Part shown: positions 40,119 through 64,000 of the stretch, one piece after another | How the letters are laid out: every line of letters begins with the position of its first letter | Numbering within the stretch: position 1 is the stretch's first letter | Source of the DNA: Nepenthes gracilis | Taxonomy: Eukaryota > Streptophyta > Magnoliopsida > Caryophyllales > Nepenthaceae | Length of the DNA stretch: 64,000 bases | Direction of reading: 5' to 3' | Assembly: GCA_033239525.1 (NCBI GenBank) | Contig: BSYO01000033.1 | Span: 10,717,501-10,781,500, forward strand | Program-made: the position numbers and the translations under genes | Notes under the pieces: generated by a model | Databases searched by the model: none | What the model was told of the DNA's origin: nothing | What the model saw: only the letters and a program-made list of their open reading frames with translations

Positions 40119-41217
40119 TGTGACAGACCGAATTCTACCAAAAATTTAGTAGAGTTTCGTCTATAAAACGGACGTCTGCCAAATACAAAACCTGTATAAA
40201 CCCTGTATAAGATTCACAATGCATATACAACATATACACAGGATCCCATACTTCTATAAATATACAATTTGTGGAACCGACGTCATAACTCTTGTATGGT
40301 GCCGATTCAACGAAATGCCACTAGGTACCAATTAAAATCATAAAACCTACGGAAGCTACTACATCCATCAATATACAACGGAATAAAGCTACAATCCATC
40401 AATGTGACACAATTACATCAAAATACATAAGCATATCAAGCATAATACAATAATCTCCATCACCTACAAAAATTATAAACTAAGTTCCAAAAGCTTTGCA
40501 ATGCACGATCCGTGGCCTATCCTGCTCTTACGACCGACTCAGTCTCATCTGGCATAAGAGTGTGCTTATTTGGAAGGAAAGAAGAAGTAATGGTGAGTTA
40601 ACAACTCAGCAAGTGTACATAAATAATTCATAAATAGTAGATAAATAAATGAAACAGGAGATGAGAATGAAACAATATATATGGATGCATGACAATATGG
40701 AACATGTTTTGATACACTTTTATAATTACATTAATCTTTATGGATCAGGGTCAGTAAGCCTTACTAATTAAAGGTGTGGGAGAATGATGAAGGATCATGA
40801 TACCCCACATGATTTAAGGTCGTGAGCTTTTATTATCAACTCAGAGGAGGGGCCATCTACACATCATGCTTGTAGACAAGCCGATGCACCATGTGGTATA
40901 GCGTATACCTATCACCCGATTATACAGGGCTAATAAAATGCTACCATAACCTCCTGCGGTCTAGAAACAGTCATTGTTATTTCACAGCAATATCTTAAGA
41001 CTTACCAAGAGTATTACCTGCTACAATACACGGTTGGAGTAATCCTCAAGTCTATACTGTAATGCTAGTAGTAGGCTAAGGGGTATTACCTCTGTAATAT
41101 AAATATATGATCCTAATTTATAGTTTCTTATTCATTTGAGGAAATGTCCACCATAATTCATTCATAATATCTCCAACACGGAGAACAATTCGATTAAATC
41201 TCCAATTATGGATTTTC
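40119..41217 (-). repeat. 5' LTR of the minus-strand element, truncated
   Basis: Contains only the R/U5-side 1.1 kb. The U3 half is missing from 41217 on. Confidence 0.7.
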
Positions 41218-41254
41218 ATCAACATTTATTCTCAGTAATTTGGCAGCATATATG
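41217..41254 (+). repeat. Inverted 38-bp piece at the cluster's left edge
   Basis: CATCAACATTTATTCTCAG and the following AATTTGGCAGCATATATG match 58461-58498 on the same strand, with four mismatches. That sequence belongs to the end of the WF-ORF region in a plus-strand unit, yet it abuts minus-strand ORF3 here. Confidence 0.65.
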
Positions 41255-41530
41255 ATTAAGTTTTACTAATGTCAGGTTCTTAATAATATTATTATGATTT
41301 TGTTTAATTTCTAAACTTGTGTGTATTCTATCTTTAGTAGAAGAAAATGCATTAATGTTTGAACATATTTGTTTTGGTAATTCTTTTTGTAAAAAGATAA
41401 AATAATTATTTATAGCTGAAGTATATAATTTTATATGAGAAAAGATATTGTAAAATTTTATCTGAAAATTATTGTTATATAAATTTTTAATAATTATCTG
41501 ATTTTGGTCTCTACATAGGGAAAACGTCAA
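41255..41530 (-). pseudogene. Copy A: start of the Asn/Lys-rich ORF after the zinc-finger protein
   Basis: Matches 61750-62020 of the plus copy (for example RDQNQIIIKNL and FQIKFYNIF). No catalytic motif of a protease or polymerase is visible. Cut at 41255. Confidence 0.6.
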
Positions 41531-41612
41531 TTGATTAGGTTGATTAATAGGTCTAACGATTTCTTTGTTTAAAATATTTTGTTTAAGTTCTAATTCCGTA
41601 GATACATTAGAC

Positions 41613-42129
41613 TTATTTTCTATTTTTTTTTAATTTACATTGTTTAGACTTGTGTCCAAATTCTTTACATTTCCAGCATATGGCTTTTAGTAATTTATTT
41701 TCTTGAGAATTTTTGTTTATTTTAGATGAGTTAAGTGCTTTAATAAATGGATAGTGTATTAAAGAATTTTCTTTAATATTTATGGATTGTGCTTTTGAGA
41801 GTGAAGAAAGTGATTCGGTTAAGGTATTTTCTAAGAAAATTGAATTTTTAATATTATTAGAATTTAATTGAATAATTTCTTGTTTGATACTTTCGATAGG
41901 AGTTTCTTCTTGTGGATTTTGCATTTTATTAGTTTGACTTATTTTTGTTGGAGAATTAGATAAATTATTTATTTTTACAATTAATTTATCTAAAAATGCT
42001 TTTCTTTGTTGTGTAGAGGAGGTCAGTGTAACATGACCTAAAATTGGTTCAGAGAATGATTCCAATTGGTCTATAATTGATAAAGTTTTAGTAGGTCTTG
42101 ACTTAGGATGAATTAGAGTTTCTAAACTA

Positions 42130-42160
<31 letters not shown>

Positions 42161-42605
42161 CTTCTTCAGTATCTTCTTCGTCCTCAGTATCTTCTTCATC
42201 CATTGGATTAAGAAGATGTTCTAACCAAAGTTCTTCATCAATCTCTTCTTCATCATATTCTTCATTAATTTCGTCCTCTTTAGTTTTTGTTGCTATGGTA
42301 CAAATCATGTTTATGTTTGATTGATATAGATCTTGTTTAGTCAAATTATTGTTATTATCTTTTATAATAGTAGATATATTATTTTGAGAATTGTTCCAAA
42401 TATTTTTATTTCTATCTAGTTGATTAACATTTCTTATATACGGAATAAACCATTCGAAAAATGGTAAATTCTGTTTAAGTAAGTTCATTGTTTGTTTCCA
42501 CGTACTTCTATATTCTTCTGTTTGTTCTTTAGTAAACATAGTAAAGAACCAATTTCTAAGGCTATTACTATTTTCTAGCATAAATTTTTTTCTAAGTGCA
42601 TCCAT
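41613..42605 (-). pseudogene. Copy A: capsid/gag-like protein with C-terminal zinc finger
   Basis: The best-preserved copy: 330 codons without a stop from MDALRKKF. N-terminal two fifths basic/aromatic (NWFFTMFTKEQ), then a strongly acidic run of Glu and Asp (about residues 115-160) coded by GAA/GAG repeats, then a Ser/Asn/Lys-rich part, ending in CWKCKEFGHKSKQC, a complete CX2CX4HX4C finger, and a basic tail. An acidic region plus a terminal zinc finger is the layout of caulimovirid coat proteins and of retrotransposon gag. It was probably one part of a polyprotein: the linker frame upstream is separated from it by one stop. Fully open here, but the copy as a whole is broken. Confidence 0.7.
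42125..42175. repeat. (TTC)n microsatellite coding poly-Glu in copy A
   Basis: About 13 CTT/TTC repeats at 42137-42175; the same place has far fewer units in the copies at 44190-44220 and 61140-61165. Confidence 0.8.
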
Positions 42606-42647
42606 ATCTGGAATAAAATCTTTTTCAATATTTATTACATTAATTAC

Positions 42648-42971
42648 TTACATTTCTGATAGAGTTGGTGATTGTGGGGTTGGTTGTGTAATAATTTCAG
42701 GAATAGAATTTCTACTTTCTATATTTCTTCTTTCATTAGAATATGTAGATGGGTATCTAATATTTGTTGATGGTCTAGGAGTTTCATACTCATTTCTAGG
42801 ATTTTCATATTCAAAACTAATTGACGAAGGTCTTGTATTATTATAACTTAATGATCTAGGTAAATAATTTTGTGGTTGACTAAAGTTAAAAATGATATTA
42901 TCTTTAGGTGTTACAGTAATACTTATAAATTCTCTTCTTGTTATATGTCTAGATGGTTGGGAAAGATTCAC
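42648..42971 (-). pseudogene. Copy A: linker between movement and capsid-like proteins
   Basis: 107 codons, Pro/Ser/Tyr/Arg-rich and low in hydrophobics (PSRHITRREF at the start, then SRNSIPEIITQPTPQSPTLS), probably disordered. Continuous with the movement protein frame in other copies. Confidence 0.5.
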
Positions 42972-43702
42972 TTGTCTGTCTTGTGGTAAAGTAATCTCAT
43001 CCCATTTTAATAATTTTGGAGTAAAATAGCAGCATGTTCAACTTTTACTTGTAATACAATTGTCTCATCGGGTGGAGTCTGAATAAGATATTTTGGATTA
43101 AATTGATTAGTCAACAATTTAAAATAAATTCGATAAAGAATTAAAAATCCTCTTCTGTCTTCCTGTTGGGCTAAATCAGGAAGATGAACATTAAGAACTA
43201 AGGTGTTAAGGATCGTTGGATCATTTAGATCAACTGTAAAGTTGGGTGCACAATTAAAGTAGATTGATCCATTACATAAATTAGATTGAACAATTGCCAA
43301 TATAGAGTCTTTATATTTTAATAACGTTTGAACTCTTAAATATAATAAAACTGGTATATCAATTTCTAATTTGGTTAAAGGTTTAATTACTATTTGAATT
43401 AATCCATAGTGAATATAATTATAACCCTGTTATTTAAACCTTTTAATAGATAAGGATGATAATAATTTTATTTCTTCATATTCGTTTTTAATTGAAATAG
43501 TTTGTTCATTATCCTTAATAGCTAAATCAGTTTTAAAATCAAAAGTTCCTATCTGATAAATTTCTTCCATGTGTTGGATGGATATAGTCTGCCCGAAATA
43601 ATTATGACCATTATTAGGTATAATGAGGGATTCTCTAGAATTTGTTGTTGTACTATGATTCGAATTACTACCCCTGAACATTCATCTTAGTCTCGAAGCC
43701 AT
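42972..43702 (-). pseudogene. Copy A: 30K-superfamily movement protein, broken
   Basis: The first ATG is at 43702, but codon 7 is TGA where the plus copy has CGA. A second stop (TAA for CAA) follows at about 43431, and the frame is interrupted again near 43020. Motifs of the 30K family of caulimovirid and other plant virus movement proteins are plain: the GLIQIAIKPL strand, PVLLYLR, then a conserved Asp in FTVDLNDPTI. In viruses this protein widens plasmodesmata for cell-to-cell passage. The breaks prevent expression here. Confidence 0.75.
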
Positions 43703-43793
43703 TTTCAAGATTTTCTACAAATGATGTATAAAACTAAATTTCCTACAGATGACGCGGAACCATTACTTGCAAACTTAATGAAACAGGAACACC
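43703..43793 (-). other. Copy A: truncated leader
   Basis: Matches the leader before the movement protein in other copies (ATGAAACAGGAACACCCCCG on the plus strand) and stops abruptly at about 43793, where copy B's zinc-finger ORF begins. Promoter and primer site are missing. Confidence 0.65.
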
Positions 43794-43797
43794 CCCG

Positions 43798-44629
43798 ACA
43801 AACTTAATAGATGGACAGTGTATTAAAGAATTCTTTTTAATATTTATGGATTGTGCTTTTGAGAGTGAAGAAGGTGATTTGGTTAAGGTATTTTCTGAAA
43901 AAGTTGAATTTTTAATATTATTAGAATTTAATTGAATAATTTCTTGTTTGATACTTTTGATAGGAGTTTCTTCTTGCGAATTTTGAATTTTATTAGTTTG
44001 ACTTATTTTTGTTGGAGAATTAGGTAAATTATTTATTTTCATAGTTAGTTTATCTAAAAGTGTTTTTCTTTGTTGTGCAGAGCAGGTTAGTGTAACGTGA
44101 TTTAAAATTGGTTCAGAGACTGATTCAAATTGATCTATAATTGATAAAATTTTAGTCAGTCTTGATTTTGGATGTATTAGAGTTTCTAAACTAATTTCTT
44201 CTTCTTCTGCAGTTCCAGTATCTTCTTCATCTATTGGATTAAGAAGATGTTCTAACCAAAGTTCTTCTTCATCAATTTCTTCTTCATATTCGTTTTTAAT
44301 ATCATCATTTTTAGTTTCTATTGCTAGAGTAGAAATCATGTTAATGTTTGATTGATATATATTTGGTTTAATTAAATCATTATTATTTTTTGTAATAGTG
44401 GTTATATTATTTTGAGAATGGTTTCAACTATTTTTATTTCTATCTAGTTGATTAATATTTCTTATATACGAAATAAACCATTCAAAAAATGGTAAATTCT
44501 GTTTAAGTAAATTCATTGTTTGTTTTCATGTACTTCTATATTCTTCTGTTTGTTCTACAGTAAAAGTATGAAAGAACTAATTTCTAATGCTATTATTTTT
44601 TTCTAGCATAAATTCTTTTCTAAGTGCAT
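43798..44629 (-). pseudogene. Copy B: capsid/gag-like protein, 3' end missing
   Basis: Starts MDALRKEF-like at 44629 with stops in the first part; open from 44339. The acidic region is shorter than in copy A. It is cut before the zinc finger, where the leader of copy A is joined. Confidence 0.65.
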
Positions 44630-44969
44630 CCGTATCAGGAATAAAATCTTTTTCAATATTTATTATATTAATTGTTTACATTTTTGATAGAGTTGGTGAT
44701 TGTGGGGTTGGTTGTGTAATAATTTCAGGAATAGGATTTCTATTTTCTGCATTTCTTGTATCATGAGAATATGTAGGTTGATATCTAGTATTTGTTGATA
44801 GTCTAGAAGGTTCATAATCATTTCTAGGATTTTCATATTCAGAACTAATTGACGGAGGTCTTGTATTAATAAAACTTAATAATCTAGGTAAATAATTTTG
44901 TGGTTGACTAAAATTAAAAATAATATTCTCTTCTGGTGTTTCAGTAATATTAGTAAATTCTCTTCTTGT

Positions 44970-45731
44970 TATATGTCTAGGTGGTTGGGAAAGATTTACT
45001 TGCCAGTCTTGTAGTAAAGTGATCTCATCCTATTTTAATAATTTTGGAGTAAAAGTAGCAGCATGTTCAACTTCTACTTGTAATACAATTGTCTCACCAT
45101 GTGGAGTTTAAATAAGACATTTTGGATTAAATTGACTAGTGAGTAATTTAAAATAAATTTGATAAAGGATTAAAAATCCTCTTCGGTCTTCCTGTTGGGC
45201 TAAACCAGGAAGATGAACATTAAGAACTAAGGTGTTCAGGATAGTTGGATCATTTAGATCAACTGTAAATTTGGGTACACTATTAAAGTAAATTGGTCCA
45301 TTATATAAATTAGATTGAACAATTGCTAAGATAGAGTCTTTATATTTTAATAACATTTGATCTCTTAAACATAATAAAACTGGTGTATCAATTTCTAATT
45401 TGGTTAAGGGTTTAATTGCTATTTGAATTAATCCATAGTGAATATAATTATAACCTTATTGTTTAAATCTTTTAATGGATAAGGATGACAATAATTTTAT
45501 TTCTTCGTATTCGTTTTTAATTGAATTAGTTTGTTCATGATCCTTAATAGCTAAAGTAGTTTTAAAATCAAAAGTTCCTATCTGATAAATTTCTTCCATG
45601 TGTTGGGTGGGTAAAGTTCAGCCAGAATAATTATGACCATTATTTGGTATAATTAGTAATTCTCTAGTGTTTGTTGTTGTACTGTGATTCAAATTTCTAC
45701 CCCTGAACATTTGTCTTAGTCTCGAAGCTAT
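44970..45731 (-). pseudogene. Copy B: movement protein, broken
   Basis: The start codon is ATA instead of ATG (45731-45729). Stops occur near 45456 and 45110. 30K motifs are as in the other copies. Confidence 0.65.
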
Positions 45732-46012
45732 TTTTAAAATTTCTATAAATGATGCATAAAACTAAATCTCCTACAGATGATGCATAAAACTAAATCTCCT
45801 ACAGATGATACATAATCGTTACTTGCAAACTTAATGAAACAGGAACACCCCCGACAAACAACGCCCTTTTATCACCTCGACGGGCAAATACATCGGTTCA
45901 CAGGCTTAAACATTTCCTGTCGTTTCCAAAGCTATCATGCAAGTGATTATGCCTTACTCAAATGTAGAAAAAGTAGCGTATATGCCTTATACCATGCCGA
46001 AAAAATGAACGT

Positions 46013-46025
46013 GGCTCTGATACCA
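46013..46025 (-). promoter_or_regulatory. Copy B: tRNA-Met primer-binding site
   Basis: TGGTATCAGAGCC on the minus strand, a perfect complement to the 3' end of plant initiator-Met tRNA. It marks the start of minus-strand DNA synthesis in caulimovirids and many LTR elements. Confidence 0.85.
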
Positions 46026-46827
46026 AATCTGTATGTAGGATCGTATTTCAAAAATCGTAAGTACAAAACAACACGTAAACCAAAAAAGGAAAGAATTATA
46101 CCAGAATAAGGTTGAATTAAACTGCTGGACTTTGATTGATGAAGTTGATTACATACTTCAAAAGTGGGTACAAAGAAAGAAAATTTGTACAAAGAAAGGA
46201 AATGAAAATTTGTAAAGAAAATAAGGAAGGTTTCAGAAGGATTTTTTCTAGGCTTTGCCCTGGCTCTCTAAGCTCTCTTCCCAATTCTCATATTTCAAAC
46301 TCTGTCTTCAATTGAGACAAACAGGGCTTTAAATAAAAGTTCTTGAATTATCTGCACCATTGATTGTTGAAATAATTAAATAAAATCTGATCTGTTGAAA
46401 ATCAGCATCATAATTGCTAGGAATCAATTTTGTTTTGCGTCGTTGTCAGTATAATTGTTAGGAATCAATTCTGTTTTGCGTCATCGTCATCATAATTGTA
46501 AATTTGTTATTATTCATTGATGAAGACAATTTTGTTATTGGTCAATTTGATGAATAGTACTGTATAGTATCTGCATAGTGTCTGTATAGTGTCTTTTGTT
46601 GAAATTATATGTCAGAACTGCTACATATCGGCACTAATGGTTGAACATCTTTTTGACTTTGCTGCTTTATAATTGCAAGATATATATATTTATATATATA
46701 TTTTGCTACATAGTACCAAATAGTGCATAGTGCTGCATAGTACTATGTTTTGTCTAAAAATATTTTCATGATAATGGCATATTTTGGTAGAGTCCATTTG
46801 TCCTTCTGATGAGTCCTTCTTCTTGTT
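46026..46827 (-). promoter_or_regulatory. Copy B: promoter and leader region
   Basis: About 0.8 kb, no coding. On the minus strand it has a TATA box (TTTATTTAAAG, about 46327-46337), two 41-bp repeats with TTGCGTCGTTGTCAGT-type text (about 46416-46497), and multiple GCATAGTG / GTATAGTG repeats (46556-46740). It begins abruptly at 46827 against the truncated capsid-like ORF of copy C. Confidence 0.6.
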
Positions 46828-47531
46828 GATTTTGCAGTTTATTAGTTTGAATTATTTTTGTTGGGTAATTAGATAAATTATTTATTTTCATAGTTAATTT
46901 ATCTCTTATTTTTGTTGGAGAATTAGATAAATTATTTATTTTCATAGTTAATTTATCTAAAAGTACTTTTCTTTGTTGTGCAGAGGAGGTTAGTGTAACG
47001 TGATCTAAAATTGATTCAGAGAATGATTTAAATTGATCTATAATTGATAAAATTTTAGTTGGTCCTGATTTTGGATGAATTAGAGTTTCTAAACTAATTT
47101 TTTTTTTCTTTTTCGATTTCAGTATCTTCTTCGTCCATTAGATTAAGAAGATGTTCTAACCAAAGTTCTTCTTCATCAATTTCTTCTTCATATTCGTTTT
47201 TAATATCATCATTTTTAATTTCTGTTGCTAGAGTAGAAATCATGTTAATGTTTGATTGATATATATTTGGTTTAATTAAATCATTATTATTTTTTGTAAT
47301 AGTGGTTATATTATTTTGAAAATGGTTCCAACTATTTTTATTTCTATCTAGTTGATTAACATTTCTTATATACGGAATAAATCATTCAAAAAGTGGTAAA
47401 TTCTGTTTAAGTAATTTCATTATTTATTTCCACGTACTTCTATTCTTCTGTTTGTTCTACAGTAAAAGTATTAAAGAACCAATTTCTAATGCTATTATTT
47501 TTTTCTAGCATAAAATTTTTTCTAAGTGCAT
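46828..47531 (-). pseudogene. Copy C: capsid/gag-like protein, 3' end missing
   Basis: Start at 47531. Several stops and a frameshift in the acidic region (TTTTTTTTTCTTTTTCG at about 47100). A 65-base stretch is duplicated at about 46850-46960 (ATTTTTGTTGGAGAATTAGA twice). It ends before the zinc finger. Confidence 0.6.
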
Positions 47532-47879
47532 CCGTATCTGGAATAAAATCTTTTTTAATATTTATTACATTAATTGTTTATATTTCTGATAGAGTTGGTG
47601 ATTATGGGGTTGGTTGTGTAATAATTTCAGAAATATGATTTCTACTTTCTACATTTCTTGTATCATGAGAATATGTAGGTTGATATCTAATATTTGTTGA
47701 TAGTCTAGAAGGTTCATAATCATTTCTAGGATTTTCATATTCAGAACTAATTAACGGATGTCTTATATTAGTATAACTTAATGATCTAGGTAAATAATTT
47801 TGTGGTTGACTAAAATTAAAAATAATATTTCCTTCTGGTGTTTAAGTAATATTAGTAAATTCTCTTCTTGCTATATGTC

Positions 47880-48634
47880 TAGGTGGTTGGGAAAGATTTA
47901 CTTGCCAGTTTTGTGGTAAAGTGATCTCATCCCATTTTAATAATTTTGGAGTAAAAGTAGCAGCATGTTAGAACTTCTACTTGTAATACAATTGTCTCAC
48001 CATGTGGAGTTTAAATAAGATATTTTGGATTAAATTGACTAATGAGTAATTTAAAATAAATTCGATAAATGATTAAAAATCCTCTTCGGTCTTCCTGTTG
48101 GGCTAAACCAAGAAGATGAACATTAAAAACTAGGGTGTTCAGGATAGTTAGATCATTTAGATCAACTGTAAAGTTGGGTGCATAATTAAAGTAAATTGGT
48201 CCATTACATAAATTAGATTGAACAATTGCTAAGTTAGAGTCTTTATATTTTAATAACGTTTGATCTCTTAAATATAACAAAACTGGTGTATCAATTTCTA
48301 ATTCGGTTAAGGGTTTAATTGCTATTTGAATTAATCCATAGTAAATATAATTATAACCTTGTTGTTTAAATCTTTTAATGGATAAGGATGACAATAATTT
48401 TATTACTTCGTATTCGTTTTTAATTGAAATAGTTTGTTCATGATCCTTAATAGCTAAAGTAGTTTTAAAAATAAAAGTTCCTATCTGATAAATTTCTTCC
48501 ATGTGTTGGGTGGACAAAGTCCAACCAGAATAATTATGACCATTATTTGGTATAATTAGTGATTCTCTAGTGTTTATTATTGTACTGTGATTCGAATTTC
48601 TACCCCTAAACATTTGTCTTAGTTTCGAAGTCAT
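47880..48634 (-). pseudogene. Copy C: movement protein, the longest open copy
   Basis: ATG at 48634; open for 208 codons to a stop at about 48010, covering the whole 30K core (GLIQIAIKPL, PVLLYLR, FTVDLND, IIYRIYFKLL). The last quarter is behind the stop and a further frameshift near 47968. Upstream, its leader is split from its primer site by the 3.2-kb solo LTR. Confidence 0.75.
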
Positions 48635-48821
48635 TTTCAAAATTTCTACAAATGATGCATAAAACTAAATCTCTTACAGATGATACATAATTGTTACTTG
48701 CAAACTTAATGAAATAGGAACACCCCCGACAAACAACGCCCTTTTATCACCTCGACGGGTAAACACATCGGTTCATAGGCTTAAACATTTTCTATCGTTT
48801 CTAAAGCTATCATACAAGTGA

Positions 48822-48826
48822 TTATG
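48822..48826. repeat. Target-site duplication TTATG, left
   Basis: Identical to 52036-52040. The uninterrupted sequence GTGATTATGCCTTACTC is present in copy B near 45944. Confidence 0.95.
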
Positions 48827-49051
48827 TGTGACGACCCGAGTTCTTGAATATGATAATTGGGAGGTAATTAAGTTAAAATAGATAAATTGTATTCAAAAGG
48901 TACGGGAGGAATGGATTGGAAAGCTCAAAGAACCGAAACTAGTAAATCGGGAAAAATCATTCGGGGTCCGGGCTGCTGAAGCCCTGCCAGCAGGCTTGCG
49001 CCCGTGGCCTGGCCGCTCGCTGGCCGCTCGCCGGCCGCTCGAGCGGCCGGC

Positions 49052-49060
49052 GCAGTATAT
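49052..49060 (+). promoter_or_regulatory. TATA box of the 3.2-kb solo LTR
   Basis: GTATATATT directly downstream of the GGCCGCTCG repeats. Confidence 0.5.
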
Positions 49061-51069
49061 ATTCGCGCCGTGCGTTCGTTTTCCCTCATTTCGCGATCGG
49101 CCGAGGGTTTTAGAGAGAGAGAGAGGGGCGCGACCGGAGAGAGAAGAAGGGAGATCGAGCCCGGGAGTCCGATTTCGCCCGAGAGCCAGGTATAAAGGTG
49201 AAAGCACGCGTCGAGGCAAGTGTTCTCATACCCACTTCTCGTTCTCTTTCGATATTTTGTGTATTTTCGTTGGGTATTTTGTGTCGATACCCACGGGGAA
49301 TGTTAGGATATTGAAAACCCATGCCTTGAGGTCCATGAAAATGTGGTTAGTTGTCTGATTCGTGTCCGATTCGCCCGGGTGGGTTTTACCGAAACCCTAA
49401 CCTACGAGATTTTGGGGGTTTTCCATTTCCCGGCCTCGTATCATGAAATTGACCCCAAAATTGGAATCCCCACGTCCCAATGATGTATATAGGTTGGCCG
49501 TGGGTCCGATCTTGCACGTTTGGACCCGTTTGTGGCGTCTGAGCCCGTTAAAGGGGCGCTGTTACTGTTCACCCGAGACCGAAGGTGGATTTTGCGTGTT
49601 GTCACCTTCGTGAAATGATGAAATGATCCTAGAATATGAATCCCCGTATCCCAATTGTACGTATATATCGACCGGATGCCCGAATCTCGCAAGATTTGAC
49701 CCGTTCGTGGCATCCGGGAGTCTTGAAATAATTCCGTAATTGTTTATCCGAAATTGTGGAATTTAATGGAAAATTCGTTCGCGAAGCCCTTGACCCACGC
49801 CTGGACACCGTTTGAGCTTCTATTTGGAGTTAAATGTATAAATTGATTTGGGATTATAGTTACCCATGCCTCGGGTTCTATAGATTACCTGTTGGATGTC
49901 CAAAATTCCGAGAATCAACCGATTCGTGCACGTGTGCACTGTTCACGTGCACTGTACATGGGTACTACTCTTCCGAAAATATCGGACGATGTTTTGTATA
50001 ATACTTCATTGTTTAAATGCCGACTAAGTGATATATGTTTGTAGAGAGAGGAAGTTGAGGCACAACAGCAAGCACGACGAGAAAGAAAGGGGAGAGACCA
50101 CAGTTGTGATTCGATCCGGGTAAAATAATGGTAGAATGAGCTCGAGGCAAGTGTACTTCGGATCTTTTTTTTCACCATCATTGATTTCTCGTGCTTTAAA
50201 ACCGTTGAAAATGCTCTAAATGTTGATGATGCATGTTTAAAGTACATGAAGTATGTTTACTTCGATTACTCAGTTAGATTTGTGTTTATCCATGTTTATT
50301 GCAAAATTTGGCTTGGATTTCGTGAAGGAGCATGAAAATGCTGTTCAATTTCTCTTGAAAAGTATATGATGAAACCCTAGCTCGAAAATGTTATATAGTT
50401 TGAGTAAATTGTATGATTTAATGTATATGCATGGCATCTATGACATTAATTTCATGAAATATGTGCAAGTAAGAGACCGATTTGAGTTCGAAGGTTTTGG
50501 CGAAGCCCCATGTACGAAAATGAAGAGGTTTTGATGAGTTTTAACCGTAGCTTCTACTATATGAAAGTTAATTGACATCGAAATGAAGCTTCCTGTATAG
50601 TTTGTTTTCGAAAATATGTATGAACGTATACCGATAAAATTTCTATGTAAATTTAAAGAAGTGCTGAAATTGTGTTGTGAAAGTTTGATTTCGAAAATGG
50701 GATTTTCGATAAAGAAATGATTTCCGTACAGATATTTTGGGACCCGAGACTGACTACAGTCCAGGTAAGTTCTTGGGTGAGGCCTTAGAACTTACGGTGG
50801 TAATCGAGGATAGCTCTGTCCATGGAGCGATTCATGGTCCGCCCCGTCCTCAAGGCGTTAAGCCGGAGGAACATAGGCCGACCTTCGGGTGGCACACGGT
50901 ATAGATATCCCTCGGGATGGGATATACATGATATGATATGACATGATAGGCCTTGGATTGTGTGGGTGAACACAATCTATCTCGATCATTCGCCCCTTCA
51001 CTAGTAGGGTACACACGGCGGGTCACAAAGTGTTAAGATATGTCATGAAAAAAAGATGAAATGTATTGT

Positions 51070-52101: not shown

Positions 52102-52114
52102 GGCTCTGATACGA
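52102..52114 (-). promoter_or_regulatory. Copy C: tRNA-Met primer-binding site, one base changed
   Basis: TCGTATCAGAGCC on the minus strand against TGGTATCAGAGCC in copies B and D. Confidence 0.75.
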
Positions 52115-52965: not shown

Positions 52966-53179
52966 TTCTGTCCAGGGAGTAGTAGGAATCCCATAAAATA
53001 TTTATTATCAATTTAGCTTTAGCTGTTGATGTTAAAGTGGTGTAAATCTAACATGCCTTTTGCGAATCTTGGTTTGTTTTTCTTGACATAAAGACTGCCA
53101 AATTGCTGATGATAAATTTTGATGATATCCAGTACATGTAATTTAACACAAATGTTAGAATATTTTTTAATTTGTCCAT

Positions 53180-54548: not shown

Positions 54549-54705
54549 AGCTTCCCTGTAAAAATTTTTTATTAAAATATCTAAAATATGTGATGCAATG
54601 AATTGTTCAATGTCAAAATACGTTTGCCATCGTCATCAAGTAAAATCTTTTATATTTTTTCATAAAACAATATGAATATTTTGATAAATAAGATGATGAA
54701 TAAAA

Positions 54706-55570
54706 TCATTTTAGTTTTTGATATGCAAAAGTTCTTTTGTTAATATATGAAAAATAATTGGATAAATGCAATAGTAATTCATTATTTACATGAAATCTAG
54801 TATATGATTTCATGTGTTGTATTTCTCTATTAAAATCTATTTTATTTTTATATACTTTTGATTGTGTAATTGGTTCTACATGTGTAGGATCAAATGTTAT
54901 ATTAGAATATTTATTATTGTTAATCATTAATTTGTAATTTTTCATTATTAACTTTGTTGGATTAATTTTGAAGATAAAAAATTTTCTAAAATCTTTCTTA
55001 TTTATAAAATATTTTTGTAAGTAAAAATTACTTGATATTGGATTCAAATATTTAATAATGATTGATTTTTGAAGATATTTTAAAAATCTAATTAATTTTA
55101 AAAATATCTTAGGTTTAGAAATACTTCGTTTATCATTTATAATTATTTGGTTTATTACGTGTTTGGCTAAAGTCTGTCTTTTATAATATTATTTGTTATT
55201 TTGCCAATATCTTAATTTTTTATTATATTTTGAAAACATATTTATTTTTCCTATACAATTATTGTTATGAGCTATTTGAGTTTTATTTTGATCATACAGT
55301 TGTTGTATTGTCTTAGTATGATTTACTAAATTATTTTGTGATTGTTTTTCTTTTCGATTTCCATGTCACGAAATAATTGTATTAAATTTTATTAATTAAT
55401 TTATTGTAAATTTGTTTTGGCAATAATAAATTATTTTTATTATTAAAAATATTTTTATTTAGTTGTAATTTATTTAGGTTGTCTGATTGATGTAGTGTTA
55501 AAGTATTAATTTTATATCTCTGTGTTGCTAATTCTTTTAAAAATTAAAATAATATTGTAGGAATCTCAAC
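54706..55570 (-). pseudogene. Coiled-coil and Asn/Lys-rich ORFs, minus arm
   Basis: Two parts. 55047-54706 is open for 113 codons (starts MNPISSNFYLQKYFINKKDF). 55570-55060 carries Gln/Asn/Lys-rich helical text with stops. Both match 62200-63060 on the plus strand. Family not recognised. Confidence 0.5.
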
Positions 55571-55790
55571 TTGGCTCATTCTGTTACCAATATGGAATGA
55601 AAAAATTAAAAACACCACCATCTTTTTCAATATTTATTACATTAATTGTTTGTATTTACGATAAGATTTGTTAATATGATTTTGAACTAATTAATTCATC
55701 TTCAGGATTATCTAAATCTCCAGTTGTAACTTGATGAAATAGAGAAGGAGTAGGATATTTTTCAAATATTTTGGTTAAACTATTAATAAG
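55571..55790 (-). other. Spacer at the centre of the inverted repeat
   Basis: 55620-55665 matches the sequence just before the capsid-like ORF (compare 42618-42665, minus). Beyond it, 55666-55790 encodes on the minus strand a short segment (EKYPTPSLFHQV, DNPEDELIS) not found in the other copies. It may be a piece of a variant unit. Confidence 0.45.
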
Positions 55791-57000
55791 AACCTGACAT
55801 TAGTAAAACATAATCAACCTATTCTGATAAAGAATGAATATTCTCAATTAACTCCGACGTGGATAGTAGATTATCAAATATTTCTTAAGAAAAATATAGA
55901 AATAAATATTCAATATAATTATCAGAAATATCACAAAATAATATTTGATAACATATTATATGCTAATAAACTATATAATTCATTTATATAATATTATTTT
56001 ATTTTTTGAAAAGAATTCGCAATACAGAGATATAAAAATAATATTTTAACACTAAATCAATCAGAGATCCCAAATAAATTACAAATAAATAATAATAATA
56101 TTTTAAACCAATTCAATAATAAAGACAACCCATTATTGAAAAAATAAATTTATACTGAATTAATTAATAAAAATTTAATGCAATTATTTCATGACACATA
56201 AATTAAAAAAGAAAAACTATCACAACATATGTAGTACATCATGTTAAGAAAATACAACAATTGTATGATCAAAGTAAAAATCAAATATATCATAAGCTTA
56301 ACAAAAATAATTGTATAGAAAAAATATATATGTTTTCAAAATATAATATATAATTAAGATATTGGCAACATAATAAAAAATAATATTATAAAAAGCTGAC
56401 TTTAATCCAGCATTTAATCAATCAAATAAATAATTAATTAATTAAAAAATATCAACAAAACATCCCTAAACCCAAGTTATTTTTAAAAGTAATTAGATTT
56501 TTAAAATATCTTCAAAAATCAGTCATTACTAAATATTTGAATAAAATATCAAGTAATTTTTACTTACAAAAATATTTTATAAATAAGAAAGATTTTAGAA
56601 AATCTTTTATCTTCAAATTTAATCCAACAAAGTTAATAATGAAAAATCACAAATTAATGGTTGACAATAATAAATATTCTACTATAACATTTGCTTTACA
56701 CCTGTAGAACCAATTACACAATCAAGTATATAAAAATAAAACAATTCTAATGTAGAAATACAACATATGAAATCATATAAAGTTAATACTAGATTTCCTA
56801 TAAAAACAAAGAATTATCATTGCATTCATCTAAGTATTTCTTATATTTTAATAAAAGAACTTTTTGCATATCAAAAAACCAAAATGATTTTATTCATTAT
56901 CTTGTTTATCAAAAATTCATATTGTTTTACGAAAAGACATAAAAGATTTTATTTCGGTACGATGGCAAACGTATTTTGACATTGAATAATTTATTGCATC
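55791..57000 (+). pseudogene. Coiled-coil and Asn/Lys-rich ORFs, plus arm
   Basis: Starts inside the ORF (AAGAACCTGACATTAGTAAA as at 62008) and runs through the coiled-coil part and the NPISS-like part (about 56540-56980). Very many stops; the most decayed of the copies. Confidence 0.5.
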
Positions 57001-57043
57001 ACATATTTTAGATATTTTAATAAAAAAAAATTTACAGGAAGCT

Positions 57044-58404
57044 ATGGCTCCTAAAGGAAAAGAGAAGGACATTTCATCTCCATATACTCCAGTAAAGCAA
57101 CCACCAAAACAATCTATCCAAGATTATGTAATGTCTAAACCACAGATTATACCAACCTCCAATAAATATACAACCTTACGTGACTTTTCGCCATTAAATT
57201 TCAAGTAAGCTGTCACTCCCACTTCCTCTTCAACTCAACCCGTGCCTATATCCAATGATAACCATTATATCACCAAACCACTCAAACTCCATGTTGCTCT
57301 TACTATCAAAAACCATTACTAAATGAACTTATTATCTTGACAAATAAAATATTTTATCCCAATTGTCTATACCAAATTACGGATGTTTCTAAAACCCAAC
57401 AGTACTATGAATTAATCTTAATTGATTCTGATTTTGTTGAAATCAAACATCATCGCAATCCTCGAGACAATACCATTACCTTTTCTACTATCAAAATTAA
57501 ACATGTTAAACTTTTTCATAATGTTGGACTTAACTCTTGGGATACTAAACCTTTTTCTGTTCATTATCAACCAAAAGGATACAATTATCAAGATTACAAA
57601 GAAGCCTGATTTGATGCTTTTTATCTCCGGTCATATATTCATTCCTGGTTTGTCCGATTTGACAAAACCTGTCCAAAATCATTACCAATATGATTTACAG
57701 AATGGTGGATTTACTTCGGATCATTACCAGTTCTCTATCCAAGTAGTGTTAACAATGCAAGGATGTATTATGAAGAATTACACAAAGATATATTCTTACC
57801 ACACAGAATAATCGGTTTTCATATTGATCATGAAGTTTCCTGGATTATGTTATGGCACTTTACTTGTCATCAGCATTATGAAGATTTACCATTAACTATT
57901 CAAGATATTCCTCTCTCTACTGTTCGAGAATTTAGAATTAAATGGTGAGATAAGTTTGACTATATCATGATCACTTATACTCAGATTGATACTGACTACA
58001 AGAAAAATTAAGCTTTAGCCCAAACTATAAAAATTACCTCAAAAATCCTGCCAACTACACCAACACATTATATTCCAGAACATCCAGTTATACCAAGTAC
58101 CTCAAGGCCAAAACCAAGAAGTCCCCAAGTTGTTGGATCTCAAACTTTATCTGTCTCCTCTAAACGATCTACTAAAGTTACGAAGCAAATAGAAGCCCAG
58201 AAGGCCCAATTAGATACAATGATGGTCCAAATGGCCCAAATGCATCAACAACTCTCAAAATAAATCCAAGACTTTAAGACCCAATGGGCTGATATTTCAG
58301 ATGACGATCTAGCATCAGATTTATCTACTCAACCACCCTCACGTACGGCTAGTCCACAACCTCCTTCTGCAGCTGGATATGTCCAAGATCCATTCAGTCT
58401 TTGA
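57044..58404 (+). pseudogene. WF/WW-region ORF, plus arm
   Basis: ATG at 57044, TGA at 58402-58404. About 90% like the minus-arm copy by eye. Stops near 57208, 57607 and 58261 and a frameshift near 57770. The core motifs are present but altered: PIWFTEWW has lost a Trp (TGG to TGA-type change) at about 57690. Confidence 0.65.
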
Positions 58405-58609
58405 ATAGACAAATTAAAAAAAAATCCTAACATTTGTGTTAAATTACGGGTACTGGATATCATCAACATTTATCCTCAACAATTTGGCAGTATATATGTC
58501 AAGAAAAATAAACCAAGATTCGTAAAAGGCAACTTAGATTTACACCATTGTAACATCAATAACCAAAGCCAAATTGATAATAAATATTTTATGGGATTCC
58601 TACTACTCC

Positions 58610-59427
58610 CTGAACAGAAGGACTCATCAGAAGGACAGATGGACTCTACAAAAATATTCCATTGTCAGACACATTACAACATTGTCCGAAGGAACATAGT
58701 ACTATACAACACTATGCACTATTTGGTACTATGCAGATATATATATATATATCTTACAATTATAAAGCAGCAAAGTCAAAAAGATATTTAACCATTAGTG
58801 CCGTACGCAGCAATTCTGACATATAATTTTAACAAAAGACACTATGCGAGACACTATGAAGTCACAATGCAAATACTATGCAGATCGTGTTCTCAAATTG
58901 ACCAATAATCGAATTGTCTTCATCAACGAATAAGGACAAATTTACAATTATGCTGACAACGACGTAAAATAGAATTGATTCCTGGCAATTATACTGACAA
59001 CGACGCAAAACAGAATTGATTCCTAACAATTATAATACTGATTATCAACCGTTCAGATTCTACTCAATTATTTCAACAAATCAACGGCGCAAAACATTGA
59101 AGAACATCTATTTAAAAGATTCCTCCAATCAGTTGAAGGCAGAGTTTAAAATAGAACTGAAAATAGAACTGGGAAGATAGCTTAGAGAGCTTGGGTAAAG
59201 CCCAGAGAAAATCCTTCTGAAACCTTTCATATTTTCTTTGTAATTTACATTTCTTTTCTTTGTTCAAATTTTTCTTTCTTTGTACCAACTTTTGAAGTAT
59301 GTAATCAACTTCATCAATCAAAGTCTAGCAGTTTAATTCAGCCTTATTCTGGTATAATTCTGTTCTTCTCTGGTTTACATGTTGTTTTGTACTTACGATT
59401 TATGAAATATGATCCTGAATACAGATT
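58610..59427 (+). promoter_or_regulatory. Promoter and leader region, plus arm
   Basis: Joins the WF-ORF tail to the movement protein. TATA box CTATTTAAAA at 59108-59117, about 320 bases before the primer site. Upstream are two repeats with CTGACAACGACG (58950 and 59000), which contain GACG cores like those of as-1 elements in caulimovirid promoters; whether they act so is unknown. Confidence 0.6.
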
Positions 59428-59440
59428 TGGTATCAGAGCC
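59428..59440 (+). promoter_or_regulatory. Copy D: tRNA-Met primer-binding site
   Basis: TGGTATCAGAGCC, perfect. By convention, caulimovirid genome numbering starts here. Confidence 0.85.
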
Positions 59441-59695
59441 ACGTTCATTTTTTCTGCATGGTATAAGGCATATACGCTATTTTTTCTGCATTTGAGTAAG
59501 GCATAATCACTTGCATGATAGCTTTGGAAACGATAGGGGAATGTTTAAGCCTGTGAACCGATGTGTTTGCCCGTTGAGGTGATAAAATGGCGTTGTTTGT
59601 CGGGGATGTTCCTATTTTATTAAGTTTACAAGTAATGGTTGTGCATCATCTGTAGGAAATTTAGTTTTATGCATCATTTGTAAAAAATCTTGAAA

Positions 59696-60470
59696 ATGGC
59701 ATCGAGACTAAGACGAATGTTCAGGGGTAGTAATTCAAATCATAGTACAACAACAAATAGTAGAGAATCACTCATTATACCTAATAATGGTCATAATTAT
59801 TCTGGCAGGACTATATCCACCCAACACATGTAAAAAATTTATCAGATAAGAAATTTGATTTTAAAACTACTTTAGCTATTAAGGATCATGAACAAACTAT
59901 TTCGATTAAAAACGGATATGAAGAAATAAAATTATTATCATCCTTATCTATTGAAAGGTTTAAACAACAGGGATATAATTGTATTCACTATGGATTAATT
60001 CAAATAGCAATTAAATCCTTAACCAAATTAGGAATTGATACACCAGTTTTATTATGTTTAAGATATCAAACGTTATTAAAATATAAAGACTCTATCTTGG
60101 CAATTGTTCAATCTAATTTATGTAATAGACCAATTTACTTTAATTGTGCACCCAACTTTACAGTTGATCTGAATGATCCAACAATCCTTAACACCTTAGT
60201 TCTTAATGTTCATCTTTCTGGTTTAGCCTAACAGGAAGACCGAAGAGGATTTTTAATCCTTTATCGAATTTATTTTAAATTGTTGACTAGTTAATTTAAT
60301 CCAAAATGTCTTATTTAGACTCCACCCGGTGAGACAATTGTATTACAAGTAGAAGCTGAACATGCTGCTACTTTTACTCTGAAATTATTAAAATGGGATG
60401 AGATTACTTTACCACAAGACTGGCAAGTGAATCTTCCCCAACCATCTAGACATATAACAAAATTATTTAC
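59696..60470 (+). pseudogene. Copy D: movement protein, broken
   Basis: ATG at 59696 (MASRLRRMFRG). A stop and a deletion follow at about 59830, with further stops near 60229, 60293 and 60318. The 30K motifs (IQIAIK, PVLLCLR, FTVDLND) remain readable. Confidence 0.7.
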
Positions 60471-60724
60471 CTAGATCATTAAGTTATAATAATATAAGAC
60501 CTTCGTTAATTAGTTCTGAATATGAAAATCCTAGAAATTAGTATGAAACTCCTAGACCATTAACAAATATTAGACACTCATCTGCGTATTCTCATGATAC
60601 AAGAAATATAGAAAGTAAAAATTTTATTCCTGAAATTATTATACAACCAACCCTACAATCACCAACTCTATCAGAAATACAAATAATTAATATAATAAAT
60701 ATTAAAAAAGATTTTATTTCAGAT

Positions 60725-61671
60725 ATGGATGCACTTAGAAAAGAATTTATGCTAGAAAAAAATAATAGTCTTGGAAATTGGTTCTTTACTATATTTACTA
60801 AAGAACAAACAGAAGAATATAGAAGTACGTGGAAAGAAACAATGAACTTACTTAAACAGAATTTACCGTTTTTTGAATGATTTATTTCGTATATAAAAAA
60901 TGTTAATCAAATAGATAGAAATAAAAATATTTGGAACAATTCTCGAAATAATAATCTAATATTATAAAAGATAATAACAATAATTTGACTAAACAAGATC
61001 TATATCAATCAAACATAAACATGATTTGTACCAGAGCAACAGAAGTTAAAGAGGACGAAATTAATGAAGAATATGATGAAGAAGAGATTGATGAAGAACT
61101 TTTTTTAGAATATCTTCTTAGTCTAATGGACGAAGAAGATACTGAAGATGAAGAAGAAGAAATTAGTTTAGAAACTCTAAATCTTCCTAAGTCAAGACCT
61201 ACTAAAACTTTATCAATTATAGACCAATTGGAATTATTCTCTGAACCAATTTTAGGTCATATTACACTAACCTCCTCTGCACAACAAAGAAAAGCACTTT
61301 TAGATAAATTAACTATGAAAATAAATAATTTATCTAATTTTCCAACAAACATAAGTCAAAGTAATAAAATGCAAAATCCGTAAGAAGAAACTCCTATCGA
61401 AAGTATCAAACAAGAAATTATTCAATTAAATTCTAATAATATTAAAAATTCAACTTTCTCAGAAAATACCTTAACCGAATCACCTTCTTCATTCTCAAAA
61501 GCACAATCCATAAATATTAAAGAAAATTCTTTAATACACTGTCCATCTATTAAAGCACTTAACTCATCTAAAATAAATAAAAATTTTCAAGAAAATAAAT
61601 TATTAAAAATCATATGTTGAAAATGTAAAGAACCTGGACACAAGTCTAAACAATTTAAATTAAAATAAAAA
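60725..61671 (+). pseudogene. Copy D: capsid/gag-like protein, broken, zinc finger damaged
   Basis: MDALRKEF at 60725. A TGA replaces the Trp of FFEWF at about 60879; there is a frameshift near 60955 and a stop at 61381. In the zinc finger (about 61613-61655) a Trp codon has become TGA and the last Cys is Phe (SKQF), so a metal ligand is lost. The stretch 60985-61383 is open and holds the acidic region. Confidence 0.65.
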
Positions 61672-61721
61672 ATAGAAAAAAAGTCTAATGTTTTACGGAA
61701 TTAGAACTTAAATAAAATATT

Positions 61722-62690
61722 TTGAACAAAGAAACTGTTAGACCTATTAATCAACCTAATCAATTGACGTTTTCCCTAGGTAGAGACCAAAATCAGATAA
61801 TTATTAAAAATTTACATAACAATAATTTTCAGATAAAATTTTACAATATCTTTTCTGATATAAAATTATATATTTCAGCTATAACTAATTATTTTATCTT
61901 TTTTACAAAAAGAATTACCAAAACAAATGTGTTCAAACATTAATGCATTTTCTTCTACTAAAGATAGAATACACACAATTTTAGAAATTAAACAAAAATA
62001 ATATTATTAAGAACCTGACATTAGTAAAACATAATCAACCTATTCTGATAAGGAATGAATATTCTCAATTAACTCTGACATGGATAGTAGATTATCAAAT
62101 ATTTCTTAAGAATAACATAGAAATAAATATTTAACATAATTATCAGAAATATTACAAAATAATATTTGATAACATATTATCTGCTAATAAACTATATAAT
62201 TTATTTATACAATATTATTTTATTTTTCAAAAAGAATTAGCAATACAGAGATATAAAAATAATATTTTAACACTACATTAATAAGAGATCCCAAATAAAT
62301 TACAAATAAATAATAACAATAGTTTAAACCAATTCAATAATAAAGACAACCAATTATTGAAAAATTAAATTTACAATAAATTAATTAATAAAAATTTAAT
62401 ACAATTATTTCGTGACATGAAAATCGAAAAAGAAAAACAATCACAAAATAATTTAGAAAATCATACTAAGACAATACAACAACTGCATGATCAAAATAAA
62501 ACTCAAATAGCTCATAACAATAATTGTATAGCAAAAATAAATATGTTTTCAAAATATAATAAAAAATTAAGATATTGGCAAAATAACAAACAATATTATA
62601 AAAGAAAGACTTTAGCCAAACACATAATAAACCAAATAATTATAAATTTAAACGAAGTATTTCTAAACCAAAGATATTTTTAAAATTAAT
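61722..62690 (+). pseudogene. Copy D: Asn/Lys-rich and coiled-coil ORFs
   Basis: 61722-61943 (RDQNQIIIKNL) and 62417-62683, a helical stretch with KEKQSQNNLENHTKTIQ that is likely a coiled coil. Several stops lie between. Caulimovirids often carry coiled-coil virion-associated proteins; whether this is one is a guess. Confidence 0.5.
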
Positions 62691-62733
62691 TAGTTTTTAA
62701 AAATATCTTCAAAAATCAATCATTACTAAATAT

Positions 62734-63150
62734 TTGAATCCAATATCAAGTAATTTTTACTTACAAAAACATTTTATAAATAAGAAACATTTTAGAAAAT
62801 CTTTTATCTTCAAAATTAATCCAACAAAGTTAATAATGAAAAATCACAAATTAATGATTAACAATAATAAATATTCTAATATTAAATTTGCTGCTATACC
62901 TGTAGAACCAATTACACAATCGGAAGTATATAAAAATAAAACAGATTCTAATGTAGAAATACAAAGTTAATACTAGATTTCTGTGAACAAAAGAATTATG
63001 ATTGCATTCATCCAAGTATTTTTTATATTTTAACAAAAGAACTTCTTGCATATTAAAAAACCAAAATGATTTTATTCATCATATTGTCTATCAAAATATT
63101 CATATTGTTTTACGAAAAGACATAAAAGATTTTACTTCGGTACGATGACA
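62734..63150 (+). pseudogene. Copy D: NPISS-like ORF
   Basis: Open 62734-62970 (MNPISSNFYLQKHF, then PVEPITQSEVYKNK), then frameshifted. Matches 55047-54706 on the minus arm. Basic and aromatic; no known domain recognised. Confidence 0.5.
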
Positions 63151-63226
63151 AACGTATTTTGACTTTGAACATTTTATTGCATCATATATTTTAGATATTT
63201 TAATAAAAGAATTTTTACAGGAAGCT

Positions 63227-64000
63227 ATGCCTTCTAAAGGAAACTCCTAAAGATAAAGAGAAGGACATTTCATCTCCTTATACTCCAGTGAAACAACCAC
63301 CAAAATAATCCGTCCATAATTAGACAATGTCTAAACCACAGATTATACCAACATCCAACAAATATATAACCTTACGTGACTTTCCGCCATTAAGTTTCAA
63401 GGAAGCTGTCACTCCCACTTCCTCTTCAACTCAACCCATGCCGACATCCAATGATAACCATTATAGCACCAAACCGCTAAAACTCCATGTTACTCTTACC
63501 TCTTACTATCAAAAACCATTATTAAATGAACTCATTACCTTGACAAACAAAATGTTTTATTCCAATTGTCTATACGAAACTGTGGATGTTTCTAAAACCC
63601 AACAGTACTATGAATTAATCTTAATTGATTTCGATTCTGTTGAAATCAAACACCACCGCAATACTCGAGACAATACCATTACCTTTTCTACTATCAAAAT
63701 TAAACACATCAAACTTTTTCAAGATGTTGGACTTAACACTTGAGATACTAAACCTTTTTCTGTTCATTATCAACCAAAATGATACAATTACCAAGATTAC
63801 AAAAAAGCCTGATTTAATACTTTTTATCTCCGATCTTATACTCATTCCTTGTTTATCTGATTCAATAAAACCTGTCCAAAACCATTACCAATATGGTTTA
63901 CAGAATGGTGGATTTACTTTGGAGCATTACTAATTCTCCATCCAAGTGATATTAACAATGCAAGGATGCATTATGAAGAATTACACAAAGATATATTCTT
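63227..64000 (+). pseudogene. WF/WW-region ORF, third copy, cut by the window end
   Basis: ATG at 63227 but stopped after a few codons. Open 63327-63743 (YITLRDFPPLSFKEA), then frameshifts and stops. Continues to the window end within the aromatic core. Confidence 0.6.

What the first reader, a model, noticed from the sequence alone, without database searches (positions are those of the whole stretch)
41217..64000. Caulimovirid-like unit of about 6.2 kb with movement and capsid-like proteins but no reverse transcriptase
Combining overlapping copies gives a complete circle: promoter, primer site, movement protein, linker, zinc-finger protein, coiled-coil ORFs, WF/WW ORF, promoter. No PR, RT or RNase H motif was seen in any copy or frame I read. 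Such a unit would depend on a partner. Bipartite genomes have been proposed for some endogenous florendoviruses; this may be such a component or a new movement-protein-bearing retroelement.
Basis: partly seen in the sequence, partly recalled or inferred. Interest (0 to 1): 0.88.

Follow-up and report, generated by a model that had tools for sequence, protein, structure and literature searches.

The report
Movement half of split plant virus
The stretch holds decayed copies of what looks like one half of an ancient two-part plant virus: this half carries the movement protein but no reverse transcriptase, while a second kind of unit in the same plant genome, with coat protein and reverse transcriptase but only a stump of the movement protein, shares its control region.

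Summary
Window 41253-64000 carries five pieces of an approximately 6.2-kb caulimovirid unit: intergenic region (IR) with primer site, movement protein (MP), linker, DUF7588, zinc knuckle, middle region, WF/WW domain. No protease, RT or RNase H was found. Two loci elsewhere keep this order in open frames of 1759 and 1728 codons, again without RT in the parts read. Of 42 MP-WF pairs, 0 has a scored RT hit between. MP evolved under purifying selection (dN/dS 0.08-0.32 in 33 of 36 pairs). A partner exists: a second unit with the same IR, DUF7746, coat domain, protease, RT, RNase H and an ORF with an F-box motif. Its MP is a stump in 11 of 15 sampled loci (one weak); 0 of 15 has the MP core. IR identity between the two kinds (82.6%) matches that within each (83.6 and 83.7%). 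They are joined head to tail, and a 220-bp join in the window is stitched from both. Best reading: component B of a bipartite florendovirus-like virus, with a division of labour other than the published ones. Some RT-bearing loci also have MP or WF nearby and could not be read.

The parts
41253..43803 (-). component B piece 1: region after the zinc knuckle, DUF7588/zinc-knuckle ORF 41613-42647, linker ORF 42648-43037, MP match 43082-43714 (interrupted)
43804..46820 (-). component B piece 2: DUF7588 43782-44672, linker 44679-45062, MP 45111-45761, primer site 46014-46025, IR 45854-46820
46905..48826 (-). component B piece 3: DUF7588 46805-47574, linker 47581-47964, MP in ORF 48011-48664 (Pfam MP E 9.5e-16)
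48827..52035 (.). 3209-bp insertion splitting a B copy; TG...CA ends, 5-bp direct repeat TTATG, solo-LTR-like; not part of the virus
52035..55559 (-). component B piece 4, contiguous with piece 3 before the insertion: IR 52035-53085 with primer site 52103-52114 (1 mismatch), WF/WW domain 53640-54044, middle region 54709-55188
55560..55782 (.). join made of short fragments: component A coat 55562-55620, component B linker 55620-55663, component A DUF7746/coat start 55662-55716, component A coat C-terminal part 55713-55782
55781..64000 (+). component B piece 5, longer than one unit: middle region 56384-56883, WF 57541-57945, IR 58500-59600, MP 59684-60315, linker 60373-60676, DUF7588/zinc knuckle 60704-61665, middle region 62650-62964, WF 63744-63998 and beyond the window
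59428..59445 (+). tRNA-Met-type primer binding site at the end of the IR (motif recalled)
58944..59034 (+). 41-bp tandem repeats in the IR (also at 46409-46499 and 52516-52649)

Best explanation
The unit is component B of a bipartite endogenous florendovirus-like caulimovirid. Shown: component B carries IR and primer site, MP, linker, DUF7588, zinc knuckle, a middle region and a WF/WW domain, in two loci in one long frame, with no AP, RT or RNase H found. A second unit in the same genome (component A) carries the same IR and primer site, the first part of MP (to about residue 56-68) next to DUF7588, then DUF7746, coat domain, zinc knuckle, AP, RT, RNase H and a separate ORF with an F-box motif. 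Inferred: both were transcribed from the shared IR, primed by tRNA-Met and reverse-transcribed and packaged by A's enzymes and coat. A's protease cut B's polyprotein in trans. B supplied cell-to-cell movement to both. A and B arose by complementary internal deletions of a one-part ancestor. Co-present A and B DNA was joined and captured together in the chromosome, giving the mixed arrays; the window is one of these, decayed since.
For: RT-less unit is constant: 29 of 42 MP-WF pairs lie 3.5-4.5 kb apart on one strand, on 17 contigs; scored RT, DUF7746 and F-box hits fall inside 0 of 42. Two frames of 1759 and 1728 codons span MP to WF; the parts read give MP, DUF7588 and sub-threshold zinc knuckles as the only relevant Pfam matches and no tblastn match to the partner's AP, RT or RNase H. 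Partner: RVT_1 6.7e-36, RT_RNaseH_2 1.7e-24, RVP 3.7e-9, coat domain 2.7e-8 in L074. MP stump: 11 of 15 sampled A loci (one weak), 0 of 15 with MP core. Shared IR: A-B 82.6% (65 pairs), A-A 83.6% (10), B-B 83.7% (78), best A-B 92.1%; tree intermixed. Mixed joins through the IR: F-box|IR|MP in 4 loci, WF|IR|MP stump in 3. RT within 15 kb of MP or WF in 77 of 149 hits against mean 1.7, maximum 11 in 1000 shifts. Window join built from both kinds. Selection: MP dN/dS 0.08-0.32 in 33 of 36 pairs; B frame 0.20 and 0.33, A RT 0.11, one pair each.
Against: Three of 60 A bodies have an MP hit 1.5-1.7 kb upstream of DUF7746, and eight RT hits (seven copies) have MP 3.1-4.3 kb upstream, so a one-part helper may have existed. 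Five loci place RT 1.3-1.9 kb upstream of a WF homologue. Hit lists are capped (scored: 150 of 332 MP, 150 of 624 WF, 150 of 298 DUF7746, 144 of 17734 RT candidates), so counts are not a census, and hits on one copy are not independent. The 15 A loci were picked, not drawn at random. Clustering of A and B may partly reflect shared insertion preference. Only 2 of 65 A-B IR pairs exceed 90% identity, and the MP stumps of A are mostly 43-69% identical in amino acids to the window's MP (the weak one was matched only with another MP query), so close conspecific pairs, as published for Vitis, were not shown.
Confidence: 0.83

Rival explanations
1. Component B is a defective or satellite form that parasitised a complete one-part florendovirus (MP, coat, RT together), and the A units with an MP stump are likewise defective; neither half was needed.
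For: Three of 60 RT bodies have an MP hit upstream of DUF7746, and RT-WF neighbours exist at five loci, so complete forms may have circulated.
Against: MP in B, and RT in A in the one pair tested, were kept under purifying selection over synonymous distances of 0.1-0.6, which dispensable genes of a parasite would not show. The missing parts are complementary: 0 of 15 sampled A loci has the MP core and 0 of 42 MP-WF pairs has a scored RT hit between.
Confidence: 0.12
2. All RT-less copies are rearranged or deleted after insertion from a complete provirus; the constant look is due to a few amplified loci.
For: The window is a local cluster, and some copies to its right are 96-99% identical to it, so segmental duplication does occur.
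Against: The 29 MP-WF pairs of like spacing lie on 17 contigs, two loci have open frames through the place where RT would be, and MP copies differ at synonymous sites by up to 0.58 with dN/dS at most 0.32 outside the C33 cluster.
Confidence: 0.03
3. A new retroelement class in which a host or transposon acquired a viral movement protein and is mobilised by an unrelated retrotransposon's RT.
For: The WF domain has no match in Pfam (one ORF), PHROGs or the PDB at E below 0.1, and none among 5.8 billion proteins by a word-based search.
Against: The IR, primer site, MP N-terminus and DUF7588 are shared with a caulimovirid element that carries its own RT, and the two are joined head to tail through that IR.
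Confidence: 0.02

Closest known systems
Component B of bipartite florendoviruses (VvinBV, VvinDV, OsatBV, SbicV; Geering et al. 2014, PMC4241990, passages seen)
   Same: Size range 5.5-6.9 kb, a polyprotein from MP to a C-terminal extension, no RT, intergenic region shared with an RT-bearing component A, compound insertions of A and B.
   Different: Published B carries MP, CP and AP and lacks RT and the N-terminal part of RNase H1, and its C-terminal extension is homologous to A's ORF2. Here B has no AP, coat domain or RNase H by Pfam in the parts read, and its WF extension shows no BLASTP similarity to A's ORF2. Published Vitis A loses CP partly or wholly and sometimes MP and AP; here A keeps coat and AP and lacks the MP core. 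VvinDV component B, where only MP and zinc finger were detected (PMC9719215, passage seen), is the nearest.
One-part florendoviruses such as Lotus japonicus A virus (PMC4241990, passages seen)
   Same: Gene order MP, coat with zinc finger, AP, RT, RNase H and a second ORF of 45-58 kDa; genome start set at the tRNA-Met site.
   Different: The genes are split over two units here; [quoted passage not shown]
Bipartite begomoviruses, DNA-A and DNA-B (recalled, no call)
   Same: Would work alike: one part replicates and encapsidates, the other moves, and both share a common control region.
   Different: Single-stranded DNA viruses with rolling-circle replication; no relation by descent.

Membership tests
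Caulimoviridae | 30K-type movement protein (PF01107) | tested here: met
   E 9.5e-16 in the window; 150 scored matches in the genome
Caulimoviridae | pol with AP, RT and RNase H in the virus genome | tested here: inconclusive
   Not found in the unit of the window or in the B frames read; present in the partner unit L074, so met only if the two units are one virus
Caulimoviridae | tRNA-Met primer site in the intergenic region | tested here: met
   (motif recalled)
Caulimoviridae | no integrase | tested here: met
   No integrase family among matches of the B pieces or of the three A ORFs of L074
Florendovirus (proposed genus) | RT falls in the florendovirus clade | not tested
   No named reference RT set was at hand; two scans of IMG/VR found no relatives
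Florendovirus (proposed genus) | second ORF of about 45-58 kDa after the polyprotein | tested here: met
   404-codon ORF after RNase H in L074; an F-box hit lies 1.0-2.0 kb after RT in 46 of the 53 RT hits that have one within 6 kb
Bipartite florendovirus, component B | MP present, RT absent, C-terminal extension in the same polyprotein | tested here: met
   about the last 175 and 190 codons of the two long frames were not read
Bipartite florendovirus, component B | intergenic region over 90% identical to component A | tested here: inconclusive
   Best pair 92.1%, 2 of 65 pairs over 90%, mean 82.6%, equal to within-type identity of decayed copies
Bipartite florendovirus, component B | MP over 87% identical (nucleotides) to component A | tested here: inconclusive
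   A has only a stump; its amino-acid identity to the window's MP is mostly 43-69%; nucleotide identity not computed
Bipartite florendovirus, component B | C-terminal extension homologous to component A ORF2 | tested here: not met
   BLASTP of WF region against F-box ORF2: best E 1.6; five RT loci have a WF homologue downstream but could not be read
Bipartite florendovirus, component B | CP and AP domains in component B | tested here: not met
   Only DUF7588 and sub-threshold zinc knuckles; VvinDV component B is reported with MP and zinc finger only (PMC9719215 passage)
Bipartite florendovirus, component B | compound insertions of A and B | tested here: met

The most novel reading that the evidence does not exclude
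A pararetrovirus lineage split its genome into a replication/coat part with an F-box protein and a movement part, each useless alone, in the way that begomovirus DNA-A and DNA-B do; the ORF2 of its RT-bearing part is a viral F-box protein, which would give florendovirus ORF2 a first testable function (redirecting host ubiquitin ligase), and the movement part carries a conserved WF/WW domain of unknown fold.
Probability: 0.52. Interest if true: 0.75.

Novelty: new variant of a known kind. Interest (0 to 1): 0.63.

Why it matters
Bipartite genomes are described as unique among viral retroelements and are reported for florendoviruses of a handful of hosts (PMC4241990, PMC5766536 and PMC10377300, passages). 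This genome gives an independent case with several of the tests that were wanted: complementary losses, a shared control region, selection on both halves, and A and B fragments stitched together at one chromosomal join, which points to both DNAs in one nucleus. The F-box motif in ORF2, if it holds, offers a first function for a protein of unknown function.

Tried and rejected
PF02160 (caulimovirus protease) as a handle on the partner gave 5 weak matches; one lies near an MP fragment, with RT only 33% identical to the partner's (L053), and none led to the partner. RT motifs by regular expression in the first loci found nothing useful. Stretches downstream of four unpaired MP loci showed no RT motif. 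Relatives of the F-box ORF and of the WF part among 5.8 billion proteins: none at E<=0.001. MP and RT relatives in IMG/VR: none. Rfam on the window: none. A WF profile against the PDB gave one chance-level match, E 0.18. TATA and TGACG motif counts in the IRs were uneven and are not used. The host species was not identified; the nearest named MP proteins are from Catharanthus roseus at 39-51% identity. Two stretches of the long frames not scanned before were scanned. Confidence was lowered slightly (0.85 to 0.83, novel reading 0.55 to 0.52), because the low identity of the MP stumps had been left out.
Full report
WHAT IS IN THE WINDOW. The window is G000:C33:10717501-10781500 of a 752.5-Mb genome, taken to be a plant's from its content. 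Mapping the window onto its own stretch 57000-64000 gives five viral pieces, four on the minus strand and one on the plus strand. Pieces 3 and 4 were one copy, split at 48827-52035 by a 3209-bp insertion with TG...CA ends and a 5-bp direct repeat. In the last piece repeats recur at 6183-6221 bp, so it is longer than one unit; the unit is approximately 6.2 kb. The order is IR with 41-bp repeats and primer site, MP, linker, DUF7588 with zinc knuckle, middle region, WF/WW domain, IR.

NO RT IN THE UNIT. Pfam on nine single ORFs of the window gives MP, DUF7588 and sub-threshold zinc knuckles; the other matches, E 0.018 or weaker, I take as chance. Two loci elsewhere have one open frame from MP to WF, 1759 and 1728 codons. 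The parts read, all but about the last 175 and 190 codons, give MP, DUF7588 and sub-threshold zinc knuckles and no tblastn match at E<=1e-3 to the partner's AP, RT or RNase H. The same queries match nowhere in the window at E<=1e-4; as control, RT in L073 is found at E 2e-130 although that copy has six stops. Of 150 scored MP hits, 42 have a scored WF hit downstream on the same strand within 9 kb, 29 of them at 3.5-4.5 kb; those 29 lie on 17 contigs. Scored RT, DUF7746 or F-box hits lie inside 0 of 42.

THE PARTNER. DUF7746 (PF24925), present in two of 17 homologous proteins, gave 150 scored hits of 298 candidates in this genome. Five IR loci already held (L018, L020, L023, L027, L030) run IR, MP residues up to 56-67, DUF7588, then DUF7746. 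Between one DUF7746 and the next IR on contig C4 lie the coat ORF (PF22909, 2.7e-8), a 680-codon ORF with RVP (3.7e-9), RVT_1 (6.7e-36) and RNase H (1.7e-24), and a 404-codon ORF. Ten further loci, picked by me, were read upstream of DUF7746: an MP stump in six (L081 weak; in L080 a second, 34% alignment runs on past the stump), no MP match in four, the MP core in none. So 11 of 15 have a stump and 0 of 15 the core. Two more DUF7746 loci (L071, L072) show no MP match in the flank held and are not counted. Genome-wide, 60 DUF7746-RT bodies were paired from scored hits; 3 have an MP hit 0.8-2.5 kb upstream.

ONE VIRUS OR TWO. The IR core was compared over 20 copies typed by what follows the IR (5 A, 13 B, 2 untyped; five of the 25 first extracted were the same places held twice and were dropped): A-A 83.6% (10 pairs), B-B 83.7% (78), A-B 82.6% (65), best A-B 92.1%, 2 of 65 over 90%. 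The tree, made with one duplicate still in, does not separate the two kinds. Joins through the IR occur in mixed order: F-box, IR, MP in L004, L031, L032, L034; WF, IR, MP stump in L018, L023, L030. By coordinates, RT to MP at 3.2-3.5 kb occurs 8 times and WF to DUF7746 at 2.7-3.1 kb 7 times. RT lies within 15 kb of MP or WF in 77 of 149 hits; 1000 circular shifts gave mean 1.7 and maximum 11. Shared insertion preference could explain part of that, but not the fixed spacing. Inside the window, 55560-55782 is a run of fragments of 44-70 bp: A coat, B linker, A DUF7746/coat start, A coat C-terminal part, then B; four of the five joins overlap by 1-4 bp, one has 2 unmatched bases. The best matches to the A pieces are 91-94% (E about 5e-17 or lower against the loci held). 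The simplest reading is that fragments of both DNAs were end-joined in one nucleus. Against close kinship: the MP stumps of A are mostly only 43-69% identical in amino acids to the window's MP.

SELECTION. MP from nine B copies gives 36 pairs (a tenth copy, of other length, was left out): 33 have dN/dS 0.08-0.32. Two pairs within the C33 cluster give 1.19 and 1.28, as expected after insertion; the last has no synonymous change. Between the two long frames dN/dS is 0.20 (510 codons, first part) and 0.33 (692 codons, later part), with 0.04 over 75 codons of WF. For A, one pair gives RT 0.11 and AP 0.15; the F-box ORF gives 0.24 in two pairs, at synonymous distances above 1. So both halves seem to have been maintained while replicating, which argues against deletion after insertion and against a dispensable satellite.

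THE F-BOX ORF. The 404-codon ORF of A has PF00646 as best family in 5 of 5 loci tested (L074, L044, L029, L033, L073; the last three from one cluster on C40); one, L029, is over the curated cut-off (22.7 vs 20.5 bits), the others are below. The genome has 105 matches from 103 scored candidates of 349, down to 37% identity; of 53 RT hits with an F-box hit within 6 kb downstream, 46 have it at 1.0-2.0 kb. No relative at E<=0.001 among 5.8 billion proteins, within that tool's word-based reach. Its length fits florendovirus ORF2 (45-58 kDa, PMC4241990 passage). In the library searched, 'florendovirus' with 'F-box' gives one paper, on rice RTBV-like elements (listing only), and 'caulimovir' with 'F-box' 18 (15 listed, listing only); none of the listed titles or abstract openings describes a florendovirus F-box. 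WF and the F-box ORF are not similar by BLASTP.

AGAINST AND OPEN. RT-bearing forms with MP (3 of 60 bodies; eight RT hits, seven copies, with MP 3.1-4.3 kb upstream) and with WF downstream (five loci, WF 57-63% identical, and a sixth in a rearranged cluster) point to possible one-part relatives. I could not read them. All hit lists are capped. The RT was not placed in a tree with named florendoviruses, so genus membership is likely but untested. Flanks of insertions were not compared.

KNOWN OR NEW. Geering et al. 2014 (PMC4241990; passages), a review (PMC10377300; passages) and CAULIFINDER (PMC9719215; passages) describe bipartite florendoviruses with component B lacking RT. The review says that beet also has evidence of them; I did not read that study. 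This case is therefore a new variant: no AP or coat domain found on B, coat on A, an MP stump on A, a WF extension not similar to A's ORF2, and an F-box motif in ORF2. The comparison with begomovirus DNA-A and DNA-B is from recall and is one of function, not descent. MP-DUF7588 proteins occur in Catharanthus roseus (P0002, P0007, P0013), so this pairing is not confined to this host, but it may also belong to one-part forms.

Noticed in passing
48827-52035: 3209-bp insertion with TG...CA ends and a 5-bp direct repeat, GC-rich in part: looks like a solo LTR inserted in a B copy.
   Followed up: partly
C33:10788580-10804337 (right of the window): The array continues past the window; some copies there are 96-99% identical to window copies, so part of the cluster was duplicated recently.
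   Followed up: partly
C40:23292-25328 (L073, L046): IR and MP residues 1-73 are followed about 0.5 kb on by WF and then IR again: a very short unit or a rearrangement inside a cluster.
   Followed up: no
L006 and L065: In these two loci the viral match starts at or about 10 bp before the primer site, as if linear DNA opened at that gap had been inserted.
   Followed up: no
C10:510762-515388 (L026, L035): Several IRs in a row, two of them followed by MP residues 1-122/123 only, without the rest of the unit.
   Followed up: no
32478-34127: Degenerate AAACCCT-like short tandem repeats, resembling an old interstitial telomeric stretch.
   Followed up: no
27146-28726: 526-codon open frame whose C-terminal part matches the aluminium-activated malate transporter family (PF11744, 1.4e-45), presumably a host gene or gene fragment.
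   Followed up: partly
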